DNA from: Planctomycetota bacterium
GTDB lineage: Bacteria; Planctomycetota; UBA8108; UBA1146; JAJFFE01
Assembly (NCBI GenBank): GCA_020425835.1
Contig: JAGQRC010000097.1
Location: forward strand, 1-8,782
DNA: 8,782 bases
Direction: 5' to 3'
In this document: piece by piece, positions 1-8,782 of the stretch
How the letters are laid out: every line of letters begins with the position of its first letter
Numbering within the stretch: the stretch's first letter is position 1
The notes under the pieces: model-generated
Told to the model about the DNA's origin: nothing
Databases searched by the model: none
Seen by the model: the letters and a program-made list of their open reading frames with translations, nothing else
Translations under genes and position numbers: made by a program

Positions 1-1041
1 CACTCCGAACTCCCGAGCGAGCGGGACCAGGACCGGCACGAGGAAGACGATCGCCGCGTAGATGTCGATCATGCAGCCGATGAAGAGCAGGAACAGATTC
101 AGCACCACCAGGAAGGTGAGCTGACTCGTCATGTAGCCGCGGGTCGCCTCGAAGAGCCGTCTCGGCACCTCTTCGTCCACCATCATGTTCGAGACCGCCA
201 TGGTCATCCCGAGGATGATCAGGATCCCGCCGACCAGGACGATCGTCTCGTGCGCGATGCGGGGAAGCTGGGTCCACTTCACGTCCCGATAGACGACGAC
301 CTCGACCAGGAGGATGAAGGTCGCCGAGACGACCGCGGCCTCGCTCACCGTGAACTGCCCACTGTAGATTCCCGCGACGACGACGATCGGCAGCGGAACC
401 TCCCACGCTCCTTCGCGCAGGGCGGCGCCGAGCTCGGGCCAGCTGAACGGAACGCGCGGGACGCCCGAGCGAACACCGACCACCGCGGCGTAGATGGAGA
501 GGAGCCCGAGCATGAGAAGGCTCGGGAGCACGCCCGCCGCGAAGATCTCCTCGATCGATGTTCGCGAGATCACACCGTACAGGATCACGGCGAGGCTCGG
601 TGGGAAGAGAAGCCCGAGACTCCCGCCCGCGGTGATGAGACCGAGGCTGAACCGCTCCGGATAGCCCTGCTCCTTCAGCGCGGGAAGCAGCAACCCCCCG
701 AGAGCGATCAGGGTGACGCCGGATGCGCCGGTGATCGCCGTGACGAGCGACGACGCCCAGATCGCGACGATCGCGAGCCCGCCGGGAAGCCAGCCGACCA
801 GGGCGTTCGCGAGGCGGACCAGCCGCTGAGGGGCGCGGCTGTGGGCGAGCAGATAGCCACCGAAGGCAAAGAGGGGAAGACTCGACAGGAGCGGCGTATC
901 CCCGAGGCGGTTGAAGCTGATGATGATCGCTTGGAGATCGATCTCGGCGTCGCGATGGGCGAGGATCGCGGAGAGCGCCATCACGGCGAAGAGCGGGACA
1001 CCCGCGATGGCCATCACGAAGACGATGAGCTTGCCGACCAT
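1..1041 (-). CDS. dctM: TRAP transporter large permease subunit DctM (3' end outside window)
   Basis: The ATG at 1041-1039 lies three bases after the dctQ stop, with GGAG six bases upstream. The frame runs open to base 1, giving 347 residues of a family usually near 425-435, so about 80 C-terminal residues are missing. Membrane-transport signatures are in order: SLPLFAFGGYLLA (54-66), LVGWLPGGLAIVAIW (81-95), TAITGASGVTLIALGG (101-116), LITAGGSLGLLFPPSLAVIL (135-154), AGIYSGQFTVSEAAVVSA (223-240), and IGCMIDIYAAIVFLVP (321-336). The many hydrophobic helices match the DctM elevator-type domain that carries ions and substrate through the inner membrane. No frameshift or missing motif is seen in the visible part. 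It completes the binding protein, DctQ, DctM and TatT set. Confidence 0.95.
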   Translation of the reverse strand, partial: MVGKLIVFVMAIAGVPLFAVMALSAILAHRDAEIDLQAIIISFNRLGDTPLLSSLPLFAFGGYLLAHSRAPQRLVRLANALVGWLPGGLAIVAIWASSLVTAITGASGVTLIALGGLLLPALKEQGYPERFSLGLITAGGSLGLLFPPSLAVILYGVISRTSIEEIFAAGVLPSLLMLGLLSIYAAVVGVRSGVPRVPFSWPELGAALREGAWEVPLPIVVVAGIYSGQFTVSEAAVVSATFILLVEVVVYRDVKWTQLPRIAHETIVLVGGILIILGMTMAVSNMMVDEEVPRRLFEATRGYMTSQLTFLVVLNLFLLFIGCMIDIYAAIVFLVPVLVPLAREFGV

Positions 1042-1044
1042 GAT

Positions 1045-1563
1045 CTACTCCGCGTCTCCGGAGGCGATCGATGCCTTCGGCGGACGGATGCTCCGCCCGA
1101 TGTCGACGGCCCCCGCGAGGAGGAGCCGAAGCCCGATCCAGCCGAGCCCGAACGGGATCACCAGAGGCAGCCACCAGGTCGGGACGCCCCACCAGATCGC
1201 GTCATCTCCCGAGAAGGCGCGCTCGTCGCGCACGAAGGCGATCGCGGGCGGGATCAAGACGATCAGCACCGCGCACGCGACGAGTTCCCCGACCCCGCGC
1301 AAGGCGAGCCGGGGGCGATCGGGGAGGTAGTGTCCGATCGCGTCGATCGCGATGTGCTTGCGCTGTCGAGTGGCCGCGGCGGCGCCGAAGAGGGCGATCC
1401 ACAACACGAGATACTCGGTGAACGGCTGCGCCCAAGGGAGCCCCGGTGTGCCGAGGAGCCTCGCCACGACCGGGACCAGGCAGAAGCTCAGGAGTACGGC
1501 CATAAGGGTCAGGCTGATCGCCGCCTCCAGCCGGGCGAGACGACTCTTCGAACGCTCGATCAT
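1045..1563 (-). CDS. dctQ: TRAP transporter small permease subunit DctQ
   Basis: The protein has 172 residues, normal for the family. Its ATG overlaps the binding-protein stop as ATGA (1563-1560), and GGAAGAAG about five bases upstream acts as the ribosome site. There are four membrane segments, near residues 15-35, 50-66, 92-112 and 130-150. The family signature LFGAAAATRQRKHIAID (58-74) is present: a Gly/Ala helix followed by the basic 'R..HI.ID' stretch. DctQ forms the inner-membrane complex with DctM, which uses an ion gradient to import solute delivered by the binding protein. The charged C-terminal tail (SIRPPKASIASGDAE) is short and cytoplasmic in typical topology. This is a confident call. 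Confidence 0.95.
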   Translation of the reverse strand: MIERSKSRLARLEAAISLTLMAVLLSFCLVPVVARLLGTPGLPWAQPFTEYLVLWIALFGAAAATRQRKHIAIDAIGHYLPDRPRLALRGVGELVACAVLIVLIPPAIAFVRDERAFSGDDAIWWGVPTWWLPLVIPFGLGWIGLRLLLAGAVDIGRSIRPPKASIASGDAE

Positions 1564-2546
1564 GACTTCTTCCGCAGCTCCTGCAGCGCCTCACGAACCG
1601 CATCGAGCACCGCGCCGGAGAACTCCTTGTCCCGGAGCTTCGCCTCGATGCGCTTCGTCGCCTCCCGGAGCTCGCGGCGGTCGTCCTCTCCGATCGCGGA
1701 GCACTTCATGCCCCGCTTCTCCAGGACCTCGAGCGCCTCTCGATTCTGCAAGCCGACCTTCTCGTTCAGCTCGGTGACCCTTCGCTGGATCACGTCTCGA
1801 ACGGTGCGCTGGAGGTCCTCGGGGATCTTCTTCCATGTCCGCTGCGAGACGGCGATGACTCCGACGGAGTAGTTGATCGCGAGGTCGACGCGATGCTTGA
1901 CCTTGGTGTGCCACTGGAGCGCGACCAGGCCCACCGGTGGTGAGAACACGGTGTCGATCAGCCCCGATTGGAGCCCCGGAAGGACGTCCGTGACGCCGAC
2001 CGTGACCGGCGTGATGCTCAGCGCCTCGAAGAGCTCCTTGGAGAGCCGATCGTTCTCGATCAGCCAAGGCTTCGCCTTGCGCAGCTCGGCGACCGAGCCC
2101 ACGGGTCGGGTGCTGAAGAGATACGAGAACCCGAGATGGGGCCAGGCGAGCACTTCGTAGCCGTTCTCCTGGCACTGTTTCTCGAGGAGCGGTCCGACGC
2201 GCGACAGGACTTCGTCGACCTCGGTCCGGTTCTCGAACTGCAATGGGAACTGCAGCGCGAGGCTGTCCTTGCAGATCTGGGCCAGCCCCGACCCGATGAA
2301 CGCGGCGGCATGGAGCTGTCCGACCCGGATCTTCCGGAGGACGGTCTTCTCATCGCCCTGGACACCGTTGGCGTAGCACTTGAGCCGAACGCGTCCCTCG
2401 GTGGCCTCGTCGATCTCCGCGGCCATCTCCGTCATCGCTCGACCCCAGACGCTCTGTTCCGGGGCTTGGGTGGCGAGCTTGATCTCGACGGTCTCGGAGG
2501 AGACCGACGGCGCGGTCAGCGCCAACACGAGCCAGAAGGCATGCAT
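1560..2546 (-). CDS. dctP: TRAP transporter substrate-binding protein (DctP/TatP type)
   Basis: The protein has 328 residues. The ATG at 2546 follows AGGAAG (2561-2556), which overlaps the tatT stop, with a 13-base intergenic gap. The hydrophobic start MHAFWLVLALTAPSVSS is a short signal peptide with no Arg or Lys. An upstream in-frame ATG at 2618 would add a basic region but would overlap tatT by 59 bases. Binding-protein hallmarks follow: VEIKLATQAPEQSVWG, YANGVQGDEKTVLRKI (58-73), FSTRPVGSVAELR (144-156), DVLPGLQSGLIDTVF (187-201) and WKKIPEDLQRTV (238-249). It binds the transported solute in the periplasm and hands it to the membrane pair. Where most DctP proteins have 'K-h-R' supplying an Arg to the ligand carboxylate, this one has KPW (159-161). 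Together with the tatT neighbour, this suggests a ligand other than a simple dicarboxylate. Confidence 0.92.
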   Translation of the reverse strand: MHAFWLVLALTAPSVSSETVEIKLATQAPEQSVWGRAMTEMAAEIDEATEGRVRLKCYANGVQGDEKTVLRKIRVGQLHAAAFIGSGLAQICKDSLALQFPLQFENRTEVDEVLSRVGPLLEKQCQENGYEVLAWPHLGFSYLFSTRPVGSVAELRKAKPWLIENDRLSKELFEALSITPVTVGVTDVLPGLQSGLIDTVFSPPVGLVALQWHTKVKHRVDLAINYSVGVIAVSQRTWKKIPEDLQRTVRDVIQRRVTELNEKVGLQNREALEVLEKRGMKCSAIGEDDRRELREATKRIEAKLRDKEFSGAVLDAVREALQELRKKS

Positions 2547-2559
2547 GGGATTCTGCTTC

Positions 2560-3465
2560 CTAGAAGAAGTCGTCCTTGTGCGCGAGCAGCTCGCGCGCGC
2601 GGCGACGCGCGAGGGCATTGGTCAGCGCGTCGCGGTCGTCGGAGCCCCGGGGCACATCGAGAACTGCTCGAAGCTCGTCGACGAAGAAGGCCTCGTCGAG
2701 CGTCGCCTTGCCGATGAACTCGGCACGGAGGACGCGAGGAAGGAGTGAGGCCGCTCCGCGAAGCTCGATCGCCCGCCGGAAGTGCTCACGACTTCGTTCG
2801 AGATCCTGACCCGCTCCCCGCGGCTGGGCGGCGAAGTAGACCGCGAACACGAGATGGACCGCCCCCGAGTCGTGATCGGGATCGATATCGAGGACTCGAT
2901 CGAGGAGCGCCAGGGCCCGGGGCACGTCCGCGACCGCTTCCATCGACTCGGTGTCGGAGAGGATCCAACCCAACCATGCGGAGCCCGCCGCATAGAGCGC
3001 ATCGATCGCCTCGGAGCCCTGGACCGCGGCGAGGAACTCGTCGAAGTCGCTCGTCACCGGGTCGGGAAACCCGACGAGTCTCAGGAGTTCCCAGCCGTGG
3101 GTGCGGGCCTGCTCGTTGAGGAGGCGGGCGCGATCGGTGTCGGCGAGGAAAGCCTGCGCGTAGCTCGAGAACGTGAGCGCGGCTCGTCGTCGGAGCTCGA
3201 CGTCGTCGGGTCGTGCGCGAGTGAGGCTGTCGAGAAGGAGCAAGAGGGTCGGAACGCCATCGCGGACCAACTCGATGTCGGGCTGCCGTTGGATCGTCGC
3301 GTCGAGCCCCCTCAAGAGATCGCTGGTCGCTTCAAACGCGGACGATCGGATCCAGGATGCGCACCCGGGAAGGAGTGTCCCGCACAGCGACAACAGCATC
3401 GCGACCGTTGCGCGGCGCGACGTCGGGAAGCGTTGCGATCGAGGGGCAAGGGCTCGACGAGTCAC
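2560..3465 (-). CDS. tatT: TatT-type TRAP transporter T-component lipoprotein
   Basis: The protein has 301 residues and begins at a GTG that overlaps the radical SAM stop as GTGA (3465-3462). A basic N-terminus (RR, R, RR) precedes a hydrophobic stretch, VAMLLSLCGTLLPGC, with a lipobox-like LPGC putting the lipidated cysteine at residue 35. The rest is helical and TPR-like: an early SSAFEATSDLLRG, a VPTLLLLLDSL helix, the repeat-like segment ALALLDRVLDIDPDHDSG (184-201), and a terminal ARELLAHKDDFF. The opening, the 'DG(V/I)P..LLLLDSL' segment and the 'LL..(K)D.(L/F)F' ending are typical of the TatT family, known from T. pallidum Tp0956, which docks on the binding protein TatP. Its place directly before the binding-protein gene agrees. 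It likely sits lipid-anchored facing the periplasm and assists substrate delivery. Family assignment is from pattern recall and gene order, and is fairly sure. Confidence 0.85.
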   Translation of the reverse strand: MTRRALAPRSQRFPTSRRATVAMLLSLCGTLLPGCASWIRSSAFEATSDLLRGLDATIQRQPDIELVRDGVPTLLLLLDSLTRARPDDVELRRRAALTFSSYAQAFLADTDRARLLNEQARTHGWELLRLVGFPDPVTSDFDEFLAAVQGSEAIDALYAAGSAWLGWILSDTESMEAVADVPRALALLDRVLDIDPDHDSGAVHLVFAVYFAAQPRGAGQDLERSREHFRRAIELRGAASLLPRVLRAEFIGKATLDEAFFVDELRAVLDVPRGSDDRDALTNALARRRARELLAHKDDFF

Positions 3466-4775
3466 GCGTGGACGGTCGCCGGTCGCCAGTCGCGCTCGAG
3501 ACTCGGCTCGACCGTGTCGAACTTCGCGAGCGCCGTGGTGTTGGGCGGCCGCCGCCCGTCGAAGAGGTCGCACGCGCGGTAGTACCGGAGGTCGTCCCAC
3601 CAGAGGCGCGCGAAGGTCCGATCGTGACGGAAGCGCTGCAGCAGGTCGATCGGCCGCTCCAACAGCTCGAGGACCGGGCCGAAGAGCTCCGACGGATCCC
3701 GGAAGCACTCCCAGTCGCAGCGCGTGCACGACTCGCTCCTCGGTCGCGTGTCGAGGTCGAGGTCCTCGAACGGACCGAGGCTCTCGGATCCGCGGTATCC
3801 GCACGGGTAAGCGTGCCCGTCCTTGGAGTCGACGAAGAAGAAGTCGAGCCCACCGCGACAACCGTACCCGGGATCGCGCGACGCCCCCGAGTAGTAGCGA
3901 CGAAGGGTGTGCAGTGTGGCGCGCGGCGAGAAGACGCGGATTCGGGAGCGGACCTCGGGAATGGTGTCGAAGAGCGCCTCGTAGAGCGTGGCTCGCTCGG
4001 ATGGGGCGAAGCGGACGATTCGATCGGAGGAAGTCGCCGCGTAGACCGCGGCGAGCTCCCCCGTCCCCGGGTCGACGCTCATCGGATAGCAGCAGTTGAC
4101 GATCGTGAAGCCGAGATCCACGACGCGTTGGTAGAACTCTCGAAGGCCCCGGCGATAGCGATGATAGAACTCGTCGAGGTAGCCTCGGGTCGGACCGTCG
4201 GGTCCCGCGTCGAGCTCCCACGTGAGGTCCCCGCCGAGATTGCGGTTGAGACCGAGGTTGGCCGAAGGATAGAGGCCGTGCTGGTGGAAGATCGGGATCG
4301 CGCGCGCGATCCCCTCGAAGAGGCCGCGGAAGCCCCGCATGCGCTCGTGCACCTCGGGGACCGCAGAGTCGATCGAGATCCAGAAGTTCCGAATCGGCGA
4401 CCCGGCGAGTTTCTCGATCGTCTCGTGGGTTCGAGCTTCCCATCCCGGACGATCGGGGTGCGCGAAGAGATACCCGTTGGTGCCGGTGCGAATGTACCGG
4501 ATCCCGACGTCCGCGGCGTGCCGACCGAGCTCGACGATCTCGTCGAGGTAGAGGAGCGGCTCCCCACCGGTGAAGGAGAGGACCGAGATGCCGCGGGCGG
4601 CCGCGGCGTCGATCATGCGCCGCATCGCGTCGACCTCGAGCTTCGAGCGCGCGAACTTCGAGGTCACTCGCATTTCGCACTGCGGGCACCGCGCGTTGCA
4701 CTGGTCGGTCAGCTGGATCACGAGCTGGCCGGGCACTCGTCCCCGGACGAGTGCCCTCAGTTCGCGGAGTCGCAC
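3462..4775 (-). CDS. Radical SAM enzyme with C-terminal twitch/SPASM-like cysteines
   Basis: The protein has 437 residues from the chosen GTG. The hallmark CNARCPQC (C26, C30, C33; C-x3-C-x2-C) binds the [4Fe-4S] cluster that cleaves S-adenosylmethionine. FTGGEPLLY (68-76) is the SAM-binding GGEP motif, and WISIDS (132-137) fits a core barrel strand. The C-terminal part carries YGC (C306), YPCG (C325) and CTRCDWEC (C350, C353, C357). This spacing suggests at least one auxiliary iron-sulfur cluster of twitch or SPASM type; C228, C229 and C402 are extra. Such enzymes modify peptides, sugars, lipids or cofactors. No precursor peptide gene is visible nearby, which argues mildly against peptide maturation. 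The gene overlaps the glycosyltransferase by 19 bases and shares GTGA with the tatT-like gene downstream, so its product is probably needed with both. An enzyme of unknown substrate is the safe call. Confidence 0.92.
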   Translation of the reverse strand: MRLRELRALVRGRVPGQLVIQLTDQCNARCPQCEMRVTSKFARSKLEVDAMRRMIDAAAARGISVLSFTGGEPLLYLDEIVELGRHAADVGIRYIRTGTNGYLFAHPDRPGWEARTHETIEKLAGSPIRNFWISIDSAVPEVHERMRGFRGLFEGIARAIPIFHQHGLYPSANLGLNRNLGGDLTWELDAGPDGPTRGYLDEFYHRYRRGLREFYQRVVDLGFTIVNCCYPMSVDPGTGELAAVYAATSSDRIVRFAPSERATLYEALFDTIPEVRSRIRVFSPRATLHTLRRYYSGASRDPGYGCRGGLDFFFVDSKDGHAYPCGYRGSESLGPFEDLDLDTRPRSESCTRCDWECFRDPSELFGPVLELLERPIDLLQRFRHDRTFARLWWDDLRYYRACDLFDGRRPPNTTALAKFDTVEPSLERDWRPATVHA

Positions 4776-7207
4776 GAGACCTCCAACGCTGGGCTGATGT
4801 TCGGGAGGTCCTTCAGATCGAACAGCGCGTCGCAGACCCGTTGCCAGCTGACGTCTTCCGCTGCGGTGCGGGCTCGATCGCGAAGCGGCTGGAGGGCGTT
4901 CGGATCGCGGATCCAGTCCACCATCGCATCGCGGAGTGCCTCTCGATCGGCGCGAGGACCACGGCTGGGCACGATGACTCCAGAGTCGAAGCGCGACACG
5001 ACCTCGGGTGGACCGCCTTGGTCGAAGACCACGGCCGGGAGTCCCGAGGCGTGCGCCTCGAGCACGGCGTTGCCGAACGTGTCCGACAACGATGGGAAGA
5101 CGAAGGCGTCGGCGGAGGCGTAGGCCTCCGCCAACCGCTCGCCGGTCAACGGACCGGTGAACAGCACTCGCGGAGGGCGGGACTCCCGGAGCTCGTCGAG
5201 GATCGGGCCGTCGCCGACGACCACGAGCTCCGCATCGAGTCCGCGGTGGACGACATCCTCGAACGCGCCGAGCAAGCAGTCGATGTTCTTCTCCTTGCTC
5301 ACCCGACCGACGTAGAGGAACTTGAACGCCCCGTTGAGACCGTAGCGTTCCCAGTAGCCGTTCCGACGACGTCCCGGGCTGAAGAGCGTCGTGTCGACTC
5401 CACGGCCGAGCACTGACAGCTTCTCCGGCGGGAACCCGTGTCGGACGAGACGATCCCTCGTGGCGTTGCTGGGCACGAGGATCACGTCCATCGGATCGTA
5501 GAACCAACTCATGAACCGCCAGGTCAATGCCTCGAGCGTCGCGTCACCGGTCAGTTGTCGGACGTACTCGGGGAAGTCCGTGTGGTAGATGCCGATCGTC
5601 CGCATGCCGAGTAGTCCCGCCGCCGTCCGCGCGACGAGTCCCATGGGACCGGGCGTCGAGATCCAGAGCTCCGCGAAGCGCTCTCGCTCCAGGTACTCGA
5701 GGATCTCGAGGAAGGGAGGGAACGCGAGTCGTTGATCCTCGTACTCGGGGAGCTCGAACATCCCGAGCGGCTGGAAGTTCACCAGGTCGAAGTCGACCCG
5801 AGGAGGACGTTCGGCGCACGAGACGACGGTGAGCGGTCGGCCGGACTGCTTCGCGATCGCGCTCAGGGTGCGGATCGTCCGAGACACACCGTTGATCTCG
5901 TCGATCGTGTCGGTGACCCATGCGCGTCGATCCGATCGCCACCGGCGGTCGAGAAGGGCGGGGAAGTGTTGTGCGACCTGCTGGAGGAATCGTTCATCCT
6001 TGTGTTGAGTCTTGAAGGCCGCGAGGTAGGGGGCGATCGCGAGAGCCACCGGACCCAGCGAGGCGAAGGTCTGGAGGCTGTCGATCAGCTGTCCCCGACG
6101 GAGTTTCTTCGCGAACTTCCCGAGGAACGAGAAGGCGAGCTGCTGGCTCATGTCGCAGGCCAGCTCGAACGCGCGACGATCCGCCGGACGGCCGGCTCCT
6201 CCACGGCTCTCCGACGTCTCGAAGAGCTCCGAGAACTCTCCGACGAGCGATCGCTCGATCTCCGTCAGCTTGCGCATTTTGCGACCGGGGAAGACGAGGT
6301 TGGGCAGACGCCCGAGCGCCGTGACCCATCGGAGTCGACGCTTCGGTGCGGGCTCGTTGAGGAGACGTCGGAACAACTCGGCGACCAGGGTCGATCCATG
6401 ACCCGCGCCGAGGAGCTTGTGGCGGTAGTAGCTCGACGCGATCTGATAGAAGCAGTGGGCGATCAGCACGCTGTTTCCGTGGGAGCCACCCTCTTCGTGA
6501 CGACCCGCGCGCAGGTGGTCGAGGAATTCGTCGACGTTCGCGGCGTGCGGAGTTCTCGTGAACGCTGCGCCGACGTACCGCCCACTGTGGTCATCGCTCC
6601 CGCCCGTGAACCGCTTGATCCAGGGCGTCGGTCCCACCGGCGGGATCCCGTGACGATCGGCCATGCGCTCGATCGTCCGCGGGGTCAGCTGATCGAGGAG
6701 CGCACGAGCCATCTCGCATGCGCGCGGGTCGCGGGTTCCGTTGATCGCCTCGAAACGGTCGAAGAGGAGGATCAGCTTCTCGACGTGTGCAGGCGTGAGC
6801 CGATCGTTGACGCGAAAGAGCGGGTGCGCCACGGAGTAGACGATGTCCTGCTCCGCGAGGTATCGGCGGAAGTCGTAGATGTCCCGCCGGATGTCCTGGA
6901 TCGCGGCGAACTGGGTCTCGGTGATCCCCGTCACCAGGCAGTGGATCTTGCAGTCATCCTCGGGGAAGTAGGTCGTCACTTCGCAGGAGATGAACGTGTC
7001 GGGAAGGTGGGCGATCTCCAACGCGCCCGAGATGCAGTTGTGGTCGGAGATCGTGACGAAGTCGAGACCTCGGTCCTTGGCCACTCGATAGACCTCGAGC
7101 GGGTCGACGAAGGACTCGGGCGATCCGATGCGTCGGAGGATCCACTCCGAGGGGCGATCCGAGTACTTGCTGTGGACGTGCAGGTCCGCGCTCGAGTGCT
7201 GCTTCAA
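4757..7207 (-). CDS. PHP-domain phosphoesterase fused to GT4-family glycosyltransferase
   Basis: This 816-residue two-enzyme fusion starts at TTG. Residues 7-240 are a PHP domain with its metal ligands in place: DLHVH (H10, H12), ISDHN (D55, H56), E76, H89, AHPL (H128) and GGSDDH (D205-H207). PHP domains hydrolyse phosphate esters using two or three metals. From about residue 430 comes a GT4 (GT-B fold) glycosyltransferase: an acceptor-side start DTIDEINGVSRT (433-444), YHTDFPEY, the VGRVSKEKN donor-domain start (633-641), and a nucleotide-sugar site DTFGNAVLEAHASGLP where D709 and E717 form a D-x7-E version of the usual E-x7-E. Residues 245-425 match nothing I know and look helical. No membrane segment is evident, so the protein is likely cytosolic. 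It heads the operon and overlaps the radical SAM gene by 19 bases. Plausible roles are glycan, glycolipid or glycosyl-phosphate metabolism. Domains are secure; the sugar and acceptor are unknown. Confidence 0.9.
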   Translation of the reverse strand: MKQHSSADLHVHSKYSDRPSEWILRRIGSPESFVDPLEVYRVAKDRGLDFVTISDHNCISGALEIAHLPDTFISCEVTTYFPEDDCKIHCLVTGITETQFAAIQDIRRDIYDFRRYLAEQDIVYSVAHPLFRVNDRLTPAHVEKLILLFDRFEAINGTRDPRACEMARALLDQLTPRTIERMADRHGIPPVGPTPWIKRFTGGSDDHSGRYVGAAFTRTPHAANVDEFLDHLRAGRHEEGGSHGNSVLIAHCFYQIASSYYRHKLLGAGHGSTLVAELFRRLLNEPAPKRRLRWVTALGRLPNLVFPGRKMRKLTEIERSLVGEFSELFETSESRGGAGRPADRRAFELACDMSQQLAFSFLGKFAKKLRRGQLIDSLQTFASLGPVALAIAPYLAAFKTQHKDERFLQQVAQHFPALLDRRWRSDRRAWVTDTIDEINGVSRTIRTLSAIAKQSGRPLTVVSCAERPPRVDFDLVNFQPLGMFELPEYEDQRLAFPPFLEILEYLERERFAELWISTPGPMGLVARTAAGLLGMRTIGIYHTDFPEYVRQLTGDATLEALTWRFMSWFYDPMDVILVPSNATRDRLVRHGFPPEKLSVLGRGVDTTLFSPGRRRNGYWERYGLNGAFKFLYVGRVSKEKNIDCLLGAFEDVVHRGLDAELVVVGDGPILDELRESRPPRVLFTGPLTGERLAEAYASADAFVFPSLSDTFGNAVLEAHASGLPAVVFDQGGPPEVVSRFDSGVIVPSRGPRADREALRDAMVDWIRDPNALQPLRDRARTAAEDVSWQRVCDALFDLKDLPNISPALEVSCDSAN
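4780..4784 (-). promoter_or_regulatory. Shine-Dalgarno GGAGG for the radical SAM gene, inside the glycosyltransferase gene
   Basis: GGAGG lies four bases before the GTG at 4775-4773, within the last codons of the glycosyltransferase. This supports that GTG over the next in-frame GTG at 4736-4734, which has only a weak GGGGA at a three-base spacing. The close spacing and the 19-base overlap suggest that ribosomes finishing the upstream gene re-initiate here. Confidence 0.5.
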
Positions 7208-7372: not shown

Positions 7373-8782
7373 TCAAGGGCAGCTCCCGAACGAGGGGCAA
7401 GTCAACGCGTCCGTCGTCGGGTCCGGTCCGCAGGCGGGGAATGGTGGTGGCGGCGGGGCAGCGCCGGTGAACAGGTGGGCGAGGGTCGAGACGGGATCGG
7501 CGATGTCGAAGTGGCCGTCGTCGTTGGTGTCGCAAGCGTCCGAGCAGAGCACCGAGGCGGTGCCGATGAACAGCGCGTCGAGTGCCGCGATCGCATCGCC
7601 GATGTCGATCGCTCCATCCCCGTTGCAGTCCGCGCGGATGAACGACGACGTCTCCTCGAAGAGTTGCACGGTGATCCCATCGCCCGCGACCGCGATGCGC
7701 CCGTGGCTCGCCGCGAGGCTGCTCACGGTCAGCGGGAATCCGGTCGTCGTGACCAGGTCGACGCTCCCAGCGATCGCGCCATCCGGGTCGTACCGAACCA
7801 GCACCGACTCGGAGACGATTCCGCTGACCGACACCCCGGAAGTGTACACGCCTCCTGCCGCGTTCGATCGATCGACGCCGATCGCGGTGGCGCGCTCGAC
7901 GTCGGTGCTGGGGAGGTCGATCCGCTCGACCCACAGCTCGCTGCCGAGGGCGTCGTATCCGACGGTCACGAGATCGGAGAAGTCGACCGTGTCCGGCGTG
8001 ACGCCACTCCCGGTCACGTAGACGCGCCCGTTCCCGTCGACCGCGTTGCCGAGAGGATCGGACGAAGAGCAGGGGGTCGGTCCGTGATAGCCGACCTCCC
8101 ACTCGAGAATCCCGCTGGGCGAGAGCTGAAGGGTCCGGTACTCGAAGAGCCCGCACGTCGTCTCGTGCCCGCTGGTCACGATGATCCGATCGTCGGGGCC
8201 GATCGAGAGCGTGGATGGTGCCACGACGCCTCCGAACGCGCCCAACGTCTGATGCTCCCACTCGAGTCGACCAACAGCGTCGTACCGTGCGGTCACCGTC
8301 CCCGAGCCGGACCCGAGGAACGCGGTCACGGCCACGGCGCCGGTCGAGTCGACCCCGAGCGCGAAGAAGCCGGTGCTGTCCGCGAGGATCCCGTCGTAGG
8401 GCGTCGTCCAGAGCTCGCCTCCCACCGCGTCGTAGCGGATCAGGCGGAAGTGGTCCCCGTCGGTGGTTCCGACCGTCACGGAATCATCGGGTGCGATCGC
8501 GATGGCCGGTGGATTCGAGAACGTGGGAGGGGCGGTCGTGAGCGCGAACTCGCTCTGCCAGAGAAGGACGCCGTCGAGGTCGAACCGGCACGTCACGAGG
8601 CTTCGTCCGGTGGCCGCACTCGCGAGCCCGACGACCGAGATCGAGGTCTCGGAGACGGCGACATCGGTCAGCTCATCGAAGCCGTCACCGGGTCCCGGGA
8701 AAACCACGTCCCAGAGCAGGGTGCCGTCCGGCGAGTAGCGCAGGAGGAGGAAGTCGTCGAAGCCGGGGGGATGAGGGGTGAA
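7373..8782 (-). CDS. Secreted beta-propeller repeat protein with C-terminal dockerin-like module (5' end outside window)
   Basis: The frame is open to the right edge, so the N-terminus and any signal peptide are missing; 469 residues are visible (numbered from the edge). Repeats of the form 'hxxRYDxxGxLxW' end in Trp at residues 24, 75, 125, 175, 228 and 284, with a seventh degenerate copy (YDPDGAIAG) near 331-340. The 50-56 residue spacing is typical of SBBP-like beta-propeller blades. Two EF-hand-like calcium loops of dockerin type follow: DCNGDGAIDIGD (385-396) and DTNDDGHFDIAD (418-429). The tail is Pro-rich (PPPPPFPACG) and then Cys-containing, ending SFGSCP. The domain types point to an exported calcium-binding surface or extracellular protein, probably for adhesion or assembly. 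No enzyme motif is visible. It lies 165 bases upstream of the PHP/glycosyltransferase gene on the same strand, but the spacer and hairpins make shared function doubtful. The fold call is firm; the role is unknown. Confidence 0.8.
   Translation of the reverse strand, partial: FTPHPPGFDDFLLLRYSPDGTLLWDVVFPGPGDGFDELTDVAVSETSISVVGLASAATGRSLVTCRFDLDGVLLWQSEFALTTAPPTFSNPPAIAIAPDDSVTVGTTDGDHFRLIRYDAVGGELWTTPYDGILADSTGFFALGVDSTGAVAVTAFLGSGSGTVTARYDAVGRLEWEHQTLGAFGGVVAPSTLSIGPDDRIIVTSGHETTCGLFEYRTLQLSPSGILEWEVGYHGPTPCSSSDPLGNAVDGNGRVYVTGSGVTPDTVDFSDLVTVGYDALGSELWVERIDLPSTDVERATAIGVDRSNAAGGVYTSGVSVSGIVSESVLVRYDPDGAIAGSVDLVTTTGFPLTVSSLAASHGRIAVAGDGITVQLFEETSSFIRADCNGDGAIDIGDAIAALDALFIGTASVLCSDACDTNDDGHFDIADPVSTLAHLFTGAAPPPPPFPACGPDPTTDALTCPSFGSCP

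What the first reader, a model, noticed from the sequence alone, without database searches (positions are those of the whole stretch)
1..7207. PHP-glycosyltransferase fusion and radical SAM enzyme translationally coupled to a TatT-type TRAP transporter
Six genes run without a break: 19-base overlap, GTGA overlap, 13-base gap, ATGA overlap, 3-base gap. TRAP operons usually contain only transporter and catabolic genes. Here two enzymes of quite different chemistry (sugar transfer or phosphate-ester cleavage, and radical chemistry) precede tatT. I infer a make-or-modify and transport locus for a glycosylated compound, possibly hydrophobic as has been proposed for T. pallidum TatPT. I know of no described system with this set.
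Basis: partly seen in the sequence, partly recalled or inferred. Interest (0 to 1): 0.7.

Follow-up and report, generated by a model that had tools for sequence, protein, structure and literature searches.

The report
Glycolipid-type enzyme pair beside lipid-type transporter
Six overlapping bacterial genes join two known kinds of module, a two-enzyme pair that may make phosphorus-free sugar lipids and a transporter of the type thought to carry greasy molecules; in the relatives examined the enzyme pair recurs without the transporter, so the full set looks like a local combination.

Summary
The interpretation splits. (1) PHP-GT4 and the radical SAM enzyme are a genuine, widespread pair: within 1.5 kb of each other in 55 of 80 loci; in 150 genomes of the Desulfovibrio order, 25 of 27 with the radical SAM also hold PHP-GT4. 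(2) TatT-DctP-DctQ-DctM is a TPAT transporter, a known kind. (3) The two modules are not a conserved unit: no TRAP gene found in the 80 loci, and none of 294 Planctomycetota genomes has PHP-GT4 plus TatT over cut-off. The nearest TPAT found lacks the pair. My reading: the pair makes a phosphorus-free glycolipid (phosphoesterase fused to glycosyltransferase, a PlcP-Agt analogue) and the radical SAM edits the sugar head group, perhaps glucuronosyl (nearest solved structure BlsE; a UDP-glucose dehydrogenase gene lies between GT4 and radical SAM in L007). The transporter's binding protein has Trp at the carboxylate-Arg position; 25 of 25 TatT-linked homologues lack that Arg. Function is inferred, not shown.

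The parts
4757..7207 (-). PHP-GT4: N-terminal PHP-type phosphoesterase domain (about residues 1-245), helical linker, C-terminal GT4 glycosyltransferase (about 425-805); 816 aa, TTG start
3462..4775 (-). Radical SAM enzyme, 437 aa, CNARCPQC cluster motif (C26 C30 C33) and C-terminal cysteines C306 C325 C350 C353 C357, GTG start inside the PHP-GT4 gene
2560..3465 (-). TatT, TRAP transporter T-component, candidate lipoprotein (LLPGC, read by eye), GTG start (ATG at 3399 possible)
   Evidence: Pfam TAtT E 8.5e-56; phmmer to 8g52 E 2.3e-8 and to TatT 3u64 E 3.2e-7
1560..2546 (-). DctP-family solute-binding protein of the TatP(T) type; Trp161 at the place of the carboxylate-binding Arg
   Evidence: NCBIfam TRAP_S1 269.9 bits over cut-off 50; TatP(T) 3u65/4di3 rank second and third among PDB matches; Trp 18, Phe 6, Met 1, Arg 0 in 25 TatT-linked homologues
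1045..1563 (-). DctQ small permease subunit
   Evidence: Pfam DctQ E 7.1e-21
1..1041 (-). DctM large permease subunit, cut by the window end
   Evidence: Pfam DctM E 1.8e-63

Best explanation
The segment is two modules in one transcription unit. Module A (PHP-GT4 plus radical SAM) makes a phosphorus-free glycolipid: the PHP domain cleaves a phosphate ester of a lipid (for example a phospholipid or phosphatidate) and so supplies diacylglycerol, the fused GT4 domain adds a sugar or sugar acid from a UDP-sugar, and the radical SAM enzyme changes the sugar head group, possibly at a glucuronosyl residue. It is an analogue of the PlcP-Agt lipid-remodelling pair with a different phosphoesterase fused on. 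Module B (TatT-DctP-DctQ-DctM) is a TPAT importer for a non-carboxylate, probably hydrophobic ligand. Shown: gene order, domain assignments, wide conservation of module A as a pair, absence of TRAP genes near module A in the loci examined, the Arg-to-Trp difference. Inferred: the lipid substrate, the chemistry, the radical SAM reaction, co-transcription, and any link between A and B, which is at most lineage-specific.
For: Pairing: 55 of 80 radical SAM loci have a PHP-GT4 or GT4 relative within 1.5 kb, 53 of them on the same strand (33 of 51 loci with at least 3 kb on both sides); the 4 of 294 Planctomycetota genomes with the radical SAM all have the pair side by side; in the Desulfovibrio order 25 of 27 co-occur, 6 within 1.2 kb and 6 at 7.7 kb. 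Lipid and phosphate context of the 80 loci: LGT-like 12, phosphatidylserine-decarboxylase-like 10, PstS-like 10, PhoU 8, alkaline phosphatase 5; PhoU in 4 of 29 full windows against 0.25 expected, P 1.3e-4. Pho-box-like repeats upstream of PHP-GT4: mean best score 8.80 of 14 in 70 regions against 8.43 for 554 other genes of the same loci, P 9e-4, reached by 0 of 200 permuted patterns. GT4 fold near MshA, BshA, PimA. Radical SAM nearest BlsE, cytosylglucuronate decarboxylase, by profile and by fold; a UDP-glucose dehydrogenase gene lies between GT4 and radical SAM in L007 and about 0.4 kb upstream of the radical SAM in L013. A D. alaskensis mutant in the glycosyltransferase Dde_3613 lacked glycolipids under phosphate limitation (PMC5193443, passages). 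TPAT side; T-component BstC binds sterols (PMC10942540, passages).
Against: No substrate was tested. I could not show that Dde_3613 belongs to the PHP-GT4 family (one search names no D. alaskensis protein among its best 120 of 2626). In 20 PHP-GT4 windows of the Desulfovibrio order phosphate genes are not significantly enriched: 5 of 20 against 1 of 16 controls, one-sided P 0.15. The window itself has no good Pho-box-like site (best 8 of 14). One of the PHP positions conserved in A2, D17, is Thr, Lys or Ser in the 12 aligned sequences of that order, so the metal site may differ. 25 of 80 radical SAM loci have no PHP-GT4 within 1.5 kb, 56 of 81 genomes of the Desulfovibrio order with PHP-GT4 lack the radical SAM, and 2 of 27 have the radical SAM without PHP-GT4; GT4-only partners exist (L007, L041), so neither the PHP domain nor the radical SAM is indispensable. 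The BlsE match by sequence covers profile positions 22-177 only and by fold stands about 2 Z units above the next rows. The neighbour families were chosen after seeing the loci, and PhoU was counted with different models in loci and genomes.
Confidence: 0.45

Rival explanations
1. One reading: all six genes form one make-or-modify-and-transport system, the TPAT carrying the substrate or product of the two enzymes.
For: Overlapping and closely spaced genes in the window; both modules point to hydrophobic or lipid-like compounds (PMC10942540 and PMC5812351, passages); TatT occurs over cut-off somewhere in 27 of 77 genomes that hold the radical SAM (base rate in comparable genomes without it not measured).
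Against: No TRAP gene found in 80 radical SAM loci or 20 PHP-GT4 windows; in 294 Planctomycetota genomes the PHP-GT4 model (21 genomes, 5 of them GT4 part only) and TatT over cut-off (36) share no genome, 2.6 expected by chance; the closest TPAT cassette found, 45-57% identical, is flanked by carbohydrate phosphorylase and glutamate-dehydrogenase-type genes instead.
Confidence: 0.25
2. The GT4 product is a soluble or polymeric glycoconjugate (cell-wall, exopolysaccharide or small-thiol type) and the PHP domain hydrolyses a sugar phosphate or nucleotide; no membrane-lipid role.
For: The best GT4 fold matches are MshA, sucrose-phosphate synthase and BshA; PHP families act on many phosphoesters (recalled); many database names say cell wall biosynthesis.
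Against: Recurrent neighbour families include phosphate scavenging and phospholipid chemistry; the TatT and aromatic-site DctP next door fit a greasy compound.
Confidence: 0.3
3. The radical SAM enzyme matures a peptide (SPASM/twitch type) and has nothing to do with the sugar made by PHP-GT4.
For: Fold matches to anSMEcpe, SkfB and SuiB are only about 2 to 3 Z units below BlsE; auxiliary cysteines are conserved.
Against: The usual partner is a glycosyltransferase. I saw no recurrent small precursor-like gene, but ORFs under 80-110 aa were not collected, so this was not really tested.
Confidence: 0.2

Closest known systems
PlcP-Agt lipid-remodelling operon (phospholipase C plus glycosyltransferase, MGDG/GADG under phosphate limitation; PMC4796936 and PMC5193443, passages)
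   Same: A phosphoesterase coupled to a glycosyltransferase; phosphate-starvation genes nearby in part of the genomes
   Different: The phosphoesterase is of the PHP superfamily and fused to the GT4; a radical SAM partner; product and regulation untested
TPAT (TatT-TatP(T)-TatQM) of Treponema pallidum (PMC5812351, passages)
   Same: TatT domain, DctP related to TatP(T), permease genes in one cassette, no carboxylate arginine
   Different: DctQ and DctM are separate genes; the Arg position is Trp, whereas in Tp0957 it is Ala (PMC4646407, passage); two enzymes precede it
BlsE, cytosylglucuronate decarboxylase (radical SAM; PDB 7vob)
   Different: 19% identity; far below NCBIfam's cut-off for BlsE (41.8 of 400 bits); longer, with conserved C-terminal cysteines
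BstC sterol-binding protein of Methylococcus (T-component; PMC10942540, passages)
   Same: TatT-superfamily protein. The best PDB match of the window's TatT is 8g52, a 'TPR_REGION domain-containing protein'; I suspect but did not confirm that this is BstC
   Different: BstC sits with sterol genes; no TRAP permease is described beside it in the passages read

Membership tests
TPAT (TatT-associated TRAP transporter) | TAtT domain protein | tested here: met
   PF16811 189.6 bits, cut-off 26.5
TPAT (TatT-associated TRAP transporter) | Adjacent DctP, DctQ and DctM genes | tested here: met
TPAT (TatT-associated TRAP transporter) | Binding protein without the carboxylate-binding arginine | tested here: met
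   Trp161 aligned to the Arg of KIRT in 4p47, which I take as the Arg-147 equivalent (motif recalled); W 18, F 6, M 1 in 25 TatT-linked DctPs
TPAT (TatT-associated TRAP transporter) | TatT-binding-protein complex with hydrophobic pore | not testable with these tools
   needs structure of the complex
PlcP-Agt lipid remodelling | Glycosyltransferase of GT4 fold | tested here: met
PlcP-Agt lipid remodelling | PlcP-type metallophosphoesterase (calcineurin-like, recalled) | tested here: not met
   No calcineurin-type Pfam match at E 0.1; the phosphoesterase part is PHP-type. It may work like PlcP, it is not PlcP
PlcP-Agt lipid remodelling | Control by phosphate (Pho box, Pho neighbours) | tested here: inconclusive
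   Enriched over the family, not significant in 20 windows of the Desulfovibrio order, no good site in the window
PlcP-Agt lipid remodelling | Makes MGDG or GADG | not testable with these tools
   needs lipid analysis
PHP phosphoesterase superfamily | Profile match and conserved metal-ligand pattern | tested here: met
   PHP_C 26.6 bits over cut-off 21.3; CehA/McbA model under its cut-off, 31.7 of 80 bits; HxH, D, DH, E, H, H, DxH in 27 of 27 sequences, but the D of position 17 is absent in the 12 of A3; ligand roles recalled; fold not tested
BlsE-type sugar-acid decarboxylase | Member of the BlsE family model | tested here: not met
   41.8 bits against cut-off 400
BlsE-type sugar-acid decarboxylase | Same fold of the core | tested here: met
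   the fold is shared with many radical SAM enzymes, so this shows no function

The most novel reading that the evidence does not exclude
PHP-GT4 plus radical SAM is a widespread route, found mostly in organisms named as anaerobes, to a phosphorus-free membrane lipid: one fused protein swaps the phosphate head group for a sugar acid, and the radical SAM enzyme then converts the glucuronosyl head group (for example by decarboxylation) into a head group not yet described. In the window's lineage the pair has been joined to a TPAT that moves lipid-like molecules across the periplasm.
Probability: 0.18. Interest if true: 0.8.

Novelty: new variant of a known kind. Interest (0 to 1): 0.5.

Why it matters
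If the pair makes phosphorus-free lipids, it would name enzymes for glycolipids of anoxic waters in groups whose records carry the pair here (Desulfobacterota, Nitrospirota, Planctomycetota, Hydrogenedentota, Omnitrophota, and with GT4 alone two Firmicutes), and would give a radical SAM enzyme a lipid head group as a testable substrate. The aromatic residue in place of arginine in 24 of 25 TatT-linked binding proteins (Met in the other) is a possible sequence mark for TRAP systems that are not acid importers.

Tried and rejected
Six-gene unit: rejected as a conserved system. TatT, DctP, DctQ and DctM models built from the window and 32, 24, 8 and 1 further sequences find nothing in the 80 loci; DctP, DctQ and DctM find a TRAP operon in control window L221, the TatT model had no positive there, though plain phmmer found TatT in every locus fetched for it.

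Dde_3613 as a PHP-GT4: tried through a profile of 12 sequences from the Desulfovibrio order; the best 120 of 2626 hits name Pseudodesulfovibrio, Maridesulfovibrio, Desulfocurvibacter and others but not D. alaskensis, and only part of the rows carry names; in PMC5193443 (passages) and the one paper that holds the tag (the same paper) I saw no statement of its domains. Left open.

Closer relatives of the window: 392 Planctomycetota genomes gave the same 4 radical SAM genomes and 29 genomes of the class of G263 none. The contigs of P0005, P0006, P0125, P0126 cannot be fetched with these tools. Only 3 to 5 candidates per genome were scored, so a few genes may be missed. Group names are mine: 'Planctomycetota' is the phylum of the genome of L054, 'Desulfovibrio order' that of L069, named after the record titles.

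PHP domain by PDB sequence search: no relative. The fold searches of the full model list GT4 chains, so the PHP fold was not tested by structure.

Literature: searches show, in the rows listed (one search lists 20 of 60 papers, 20 of 163), no paper on a PHP-GT4 fusion or a radical SAM partner; PMC12419801 (one passage) concerns another PHP protein. Absence is claimed only for those rows.

UDP-glucose dehydrogenase as a general neighbour: found in L007 (with L142, same genome), L013 and, beside GT4 but not the radical SAM, L146; two weak matches at 22-24% identity in L199 and L208. Suggestive; no enrichment test.
Full report
What is there. The window carries seven genes on the minus strand. The first (8782-7373, cut by the window end) has a beta-propeller-type and a dockerin match, both under cut-off; after a gap of 165 bases begins the six-gene run of the finding. 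ORF listing and family scans confirm PHP-GT4, radical SAM, TatT, DctP, DctQ and DctM with the stated overlaps and gaps. Two start codons are open to doubt: TatT could begin at the ATG at 3399, PHP-GT4 uses TTG. No whole genome is held for the window; the few close relatives that bear a name are Planctomycetota MAGs.

The enzyme pair. Among the best 120 hits PHP-GT4 has relatives at 51-60% identity over 93-100% of its length, the radical SAM at 52-73%. In 27 aligned PHP-GT4 sequences D8, H10, H12, D17, D55, H56, E76, H89, H128, D205 and H207 are identical; in 12 sequences from the Desulfovibrio order the same holds except for D17, which is Thr, Lys or Ser. The radical SAM has CX3CX2C and five further invariant cysteines in the C-terminal part. 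A scan of one genome per species (GTDB 220) with the radical SAM alignment found 242 coding places; the best 80 were kept. By record title they come from Desulfobacterota, Nitrospirota, Omnitrophota, Planctomycetota, Hydrogenedentota, Latescibacterota, Victivallales, Chloroflexota, Firmicutes and Gammaproteobacteria. In 55 of the 80 a PHP-GT4 or GT4 relative lies within 1.5 kb: 42 upstream and 11 downstream on the same strand, 2 opposite; 25 have none near, some because the contig ends. With at least 3 kb on both sides the count is 33 of 51.

Co-occurrence. In 294 Planctomycetota genomes 4 have the radical SAM, all with PHP-GT4 beside it; 21 match the PHP-GT4 model, 16 of them including PHP positions and 5 in the GT4 part only. 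In 150 genomes of the Desulfovibrio order 81 have PHP-GT4, 27 the radical SAM, 25 both (odds ratio 15, P 3e-6); in 6 the two are within 1.2 kb (three of these convergent), in 6 others 7.7 kb apart, and in 13 far apart or on other contigs. So PHP-GT4 can do without the radical SAM, the radical SAM seldom without PHP-GT4: it looks like an added step on the glycosyltransferase's product (inference).

No link to TRAP elsewhere. Profile models of TatT, DctP, DctQ and DctM find nothing in the 80 loci or in 20 PHP-GT4 windows; the last three find a TRAP operon in control window L221. In the 294 Planctomycetota genomes TatT occurs over cut-off in 36, in none of the 21 that match PHP-GT4 (2.6 expected); one, G278, has a TatT match under cut-off on another contig. 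27 of 77 genomes that hold the radical SAM have TatT over cut-off somewhere (2 of 10, 19 of 49, 6 of 18), so genome-level coexistence is not rare there, without nearness in the flanks held; two of the 80 loci lie in genomes that are not held, and two share one genome. The closest TPAT cassette found, in G263, is 49, 51, 45 and 57% identical in TatT, DctP, DctQ and DctM, and is flanked by carbohydrate phosphorylase and glutamate-dehydrogenase-type genes; neither enzyme of the pair was found in that genome. The transporter is thus a separable module.

What the transporter is. TatT matches solved T-component 3u64 and 8g52, and TatP(T) ranks second and third among solved matches of DctP. Fischer et al. 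(PMC4646407, passages) report that 3% of 6142 DctP sequences lack the carboxylate-binding arginine, Phe being the commonest substitute, and that Tp0957 has Ala there and a hydrophobic pocket. The window has Trp at this place (aligned to Arg in 4p47), and among 25 distinct TatT-linked DctPs I found Trp in 18, Phe in 6, Met in 1, Arg in none. With the sterol binding of BstC (PMC10942540, passages) this favours a non-carboxylate, greasy ligand.

What the pair may do. Among gene families within 10 kb of the radical SAM in the 80 loci are an LGT-like family (12 loci), phosphatidylserine-decarboxylase-like (10), an unnamed family of about 800-830 aa (10), PstS-like (10), PhoU (8), PhoH-like (8), PstC/PstA-like and alkaline phosphatase (5 each). 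In 29 loci with full flanks PhoU is found in 4, expected 0.25 from genome-wide counts, P 1.3e-4; this family was picked after seeing the loci. A second set of 20 PHP-GT4 windows from the Desulfovibrio order shows phosphate genes in 5, controls in 1 of 16 (one-sided P 0.15), which is not significant, and none of the LGT-like, decarboxylase-like or 800-aa families. Pho-box-like direct repeats (half-site recalled from E. coli) score higher upstream of PHP-GT4 than upstream of 554 other genes of the same loci (8.80 against 8.43, P 9e-4; 0 of 200 permuted patterns as high), but the effect is small, the sequences are related, and the window has no good site.

Verdict. Observation right; the two enzymes are a real and widespread pair; the six-gene set as one system is not supported beyond this contig. 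Most likely function of the pair is phosphorus-free glycolipid synthesis with radical editing of the head group (0.45 for the whole reading, less for a glucuronosyl substrate). The link to the TPAT may be real in this lineage, since both may handle lipids, but rests on one contig.

Noticed in passing
window 7373-8782 (-): Upstream gene, cut by the window end: beta-propeller (SBBP-type model, 18.3 of 400 bits) with a type I dockerin match under cut-off near the C-terminus; no evident tie to the operon.
   Followed up: no
L163:3116-8386; 806-828 aa family also in L008, L011, L023, L026, L037, L043, L066, L068, L070, L071: A cluster of an 806-828 aa protein without Pfam match, a phosphatidylserine-decarboxylase-like, an LGT-like and (in L163) a methyltransferase-like gene lies near the PHP-GT4/radical SAM pair in Planctomycetota and Desulfobacterota; looks like an undescribed lipid gene cluster.
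   Followed up: partly
TatT-linked DctPs in L081, L109-L138 and L158: The carboxylate-arginine position of DctP is Trp or Phe in 24 of 25 TatT-linked proteins and Met in one: a possible sequence mark of TPAT binding proteins.
   Followed up: partly
L007:7381-8547, L041:11283-12428, and Planctomycetota G012, G044, G103, G180, G286: GT4-only relatives without the PHP part exist, with the radical SAM beside them in L007 and L041.
   Followed up: partly
L163:12221-13132: A sulfotransferase-family gene follows the radical SAM directly in this Planctomycetota genome; could further modify a glycolipid head group.
   Followed up: no
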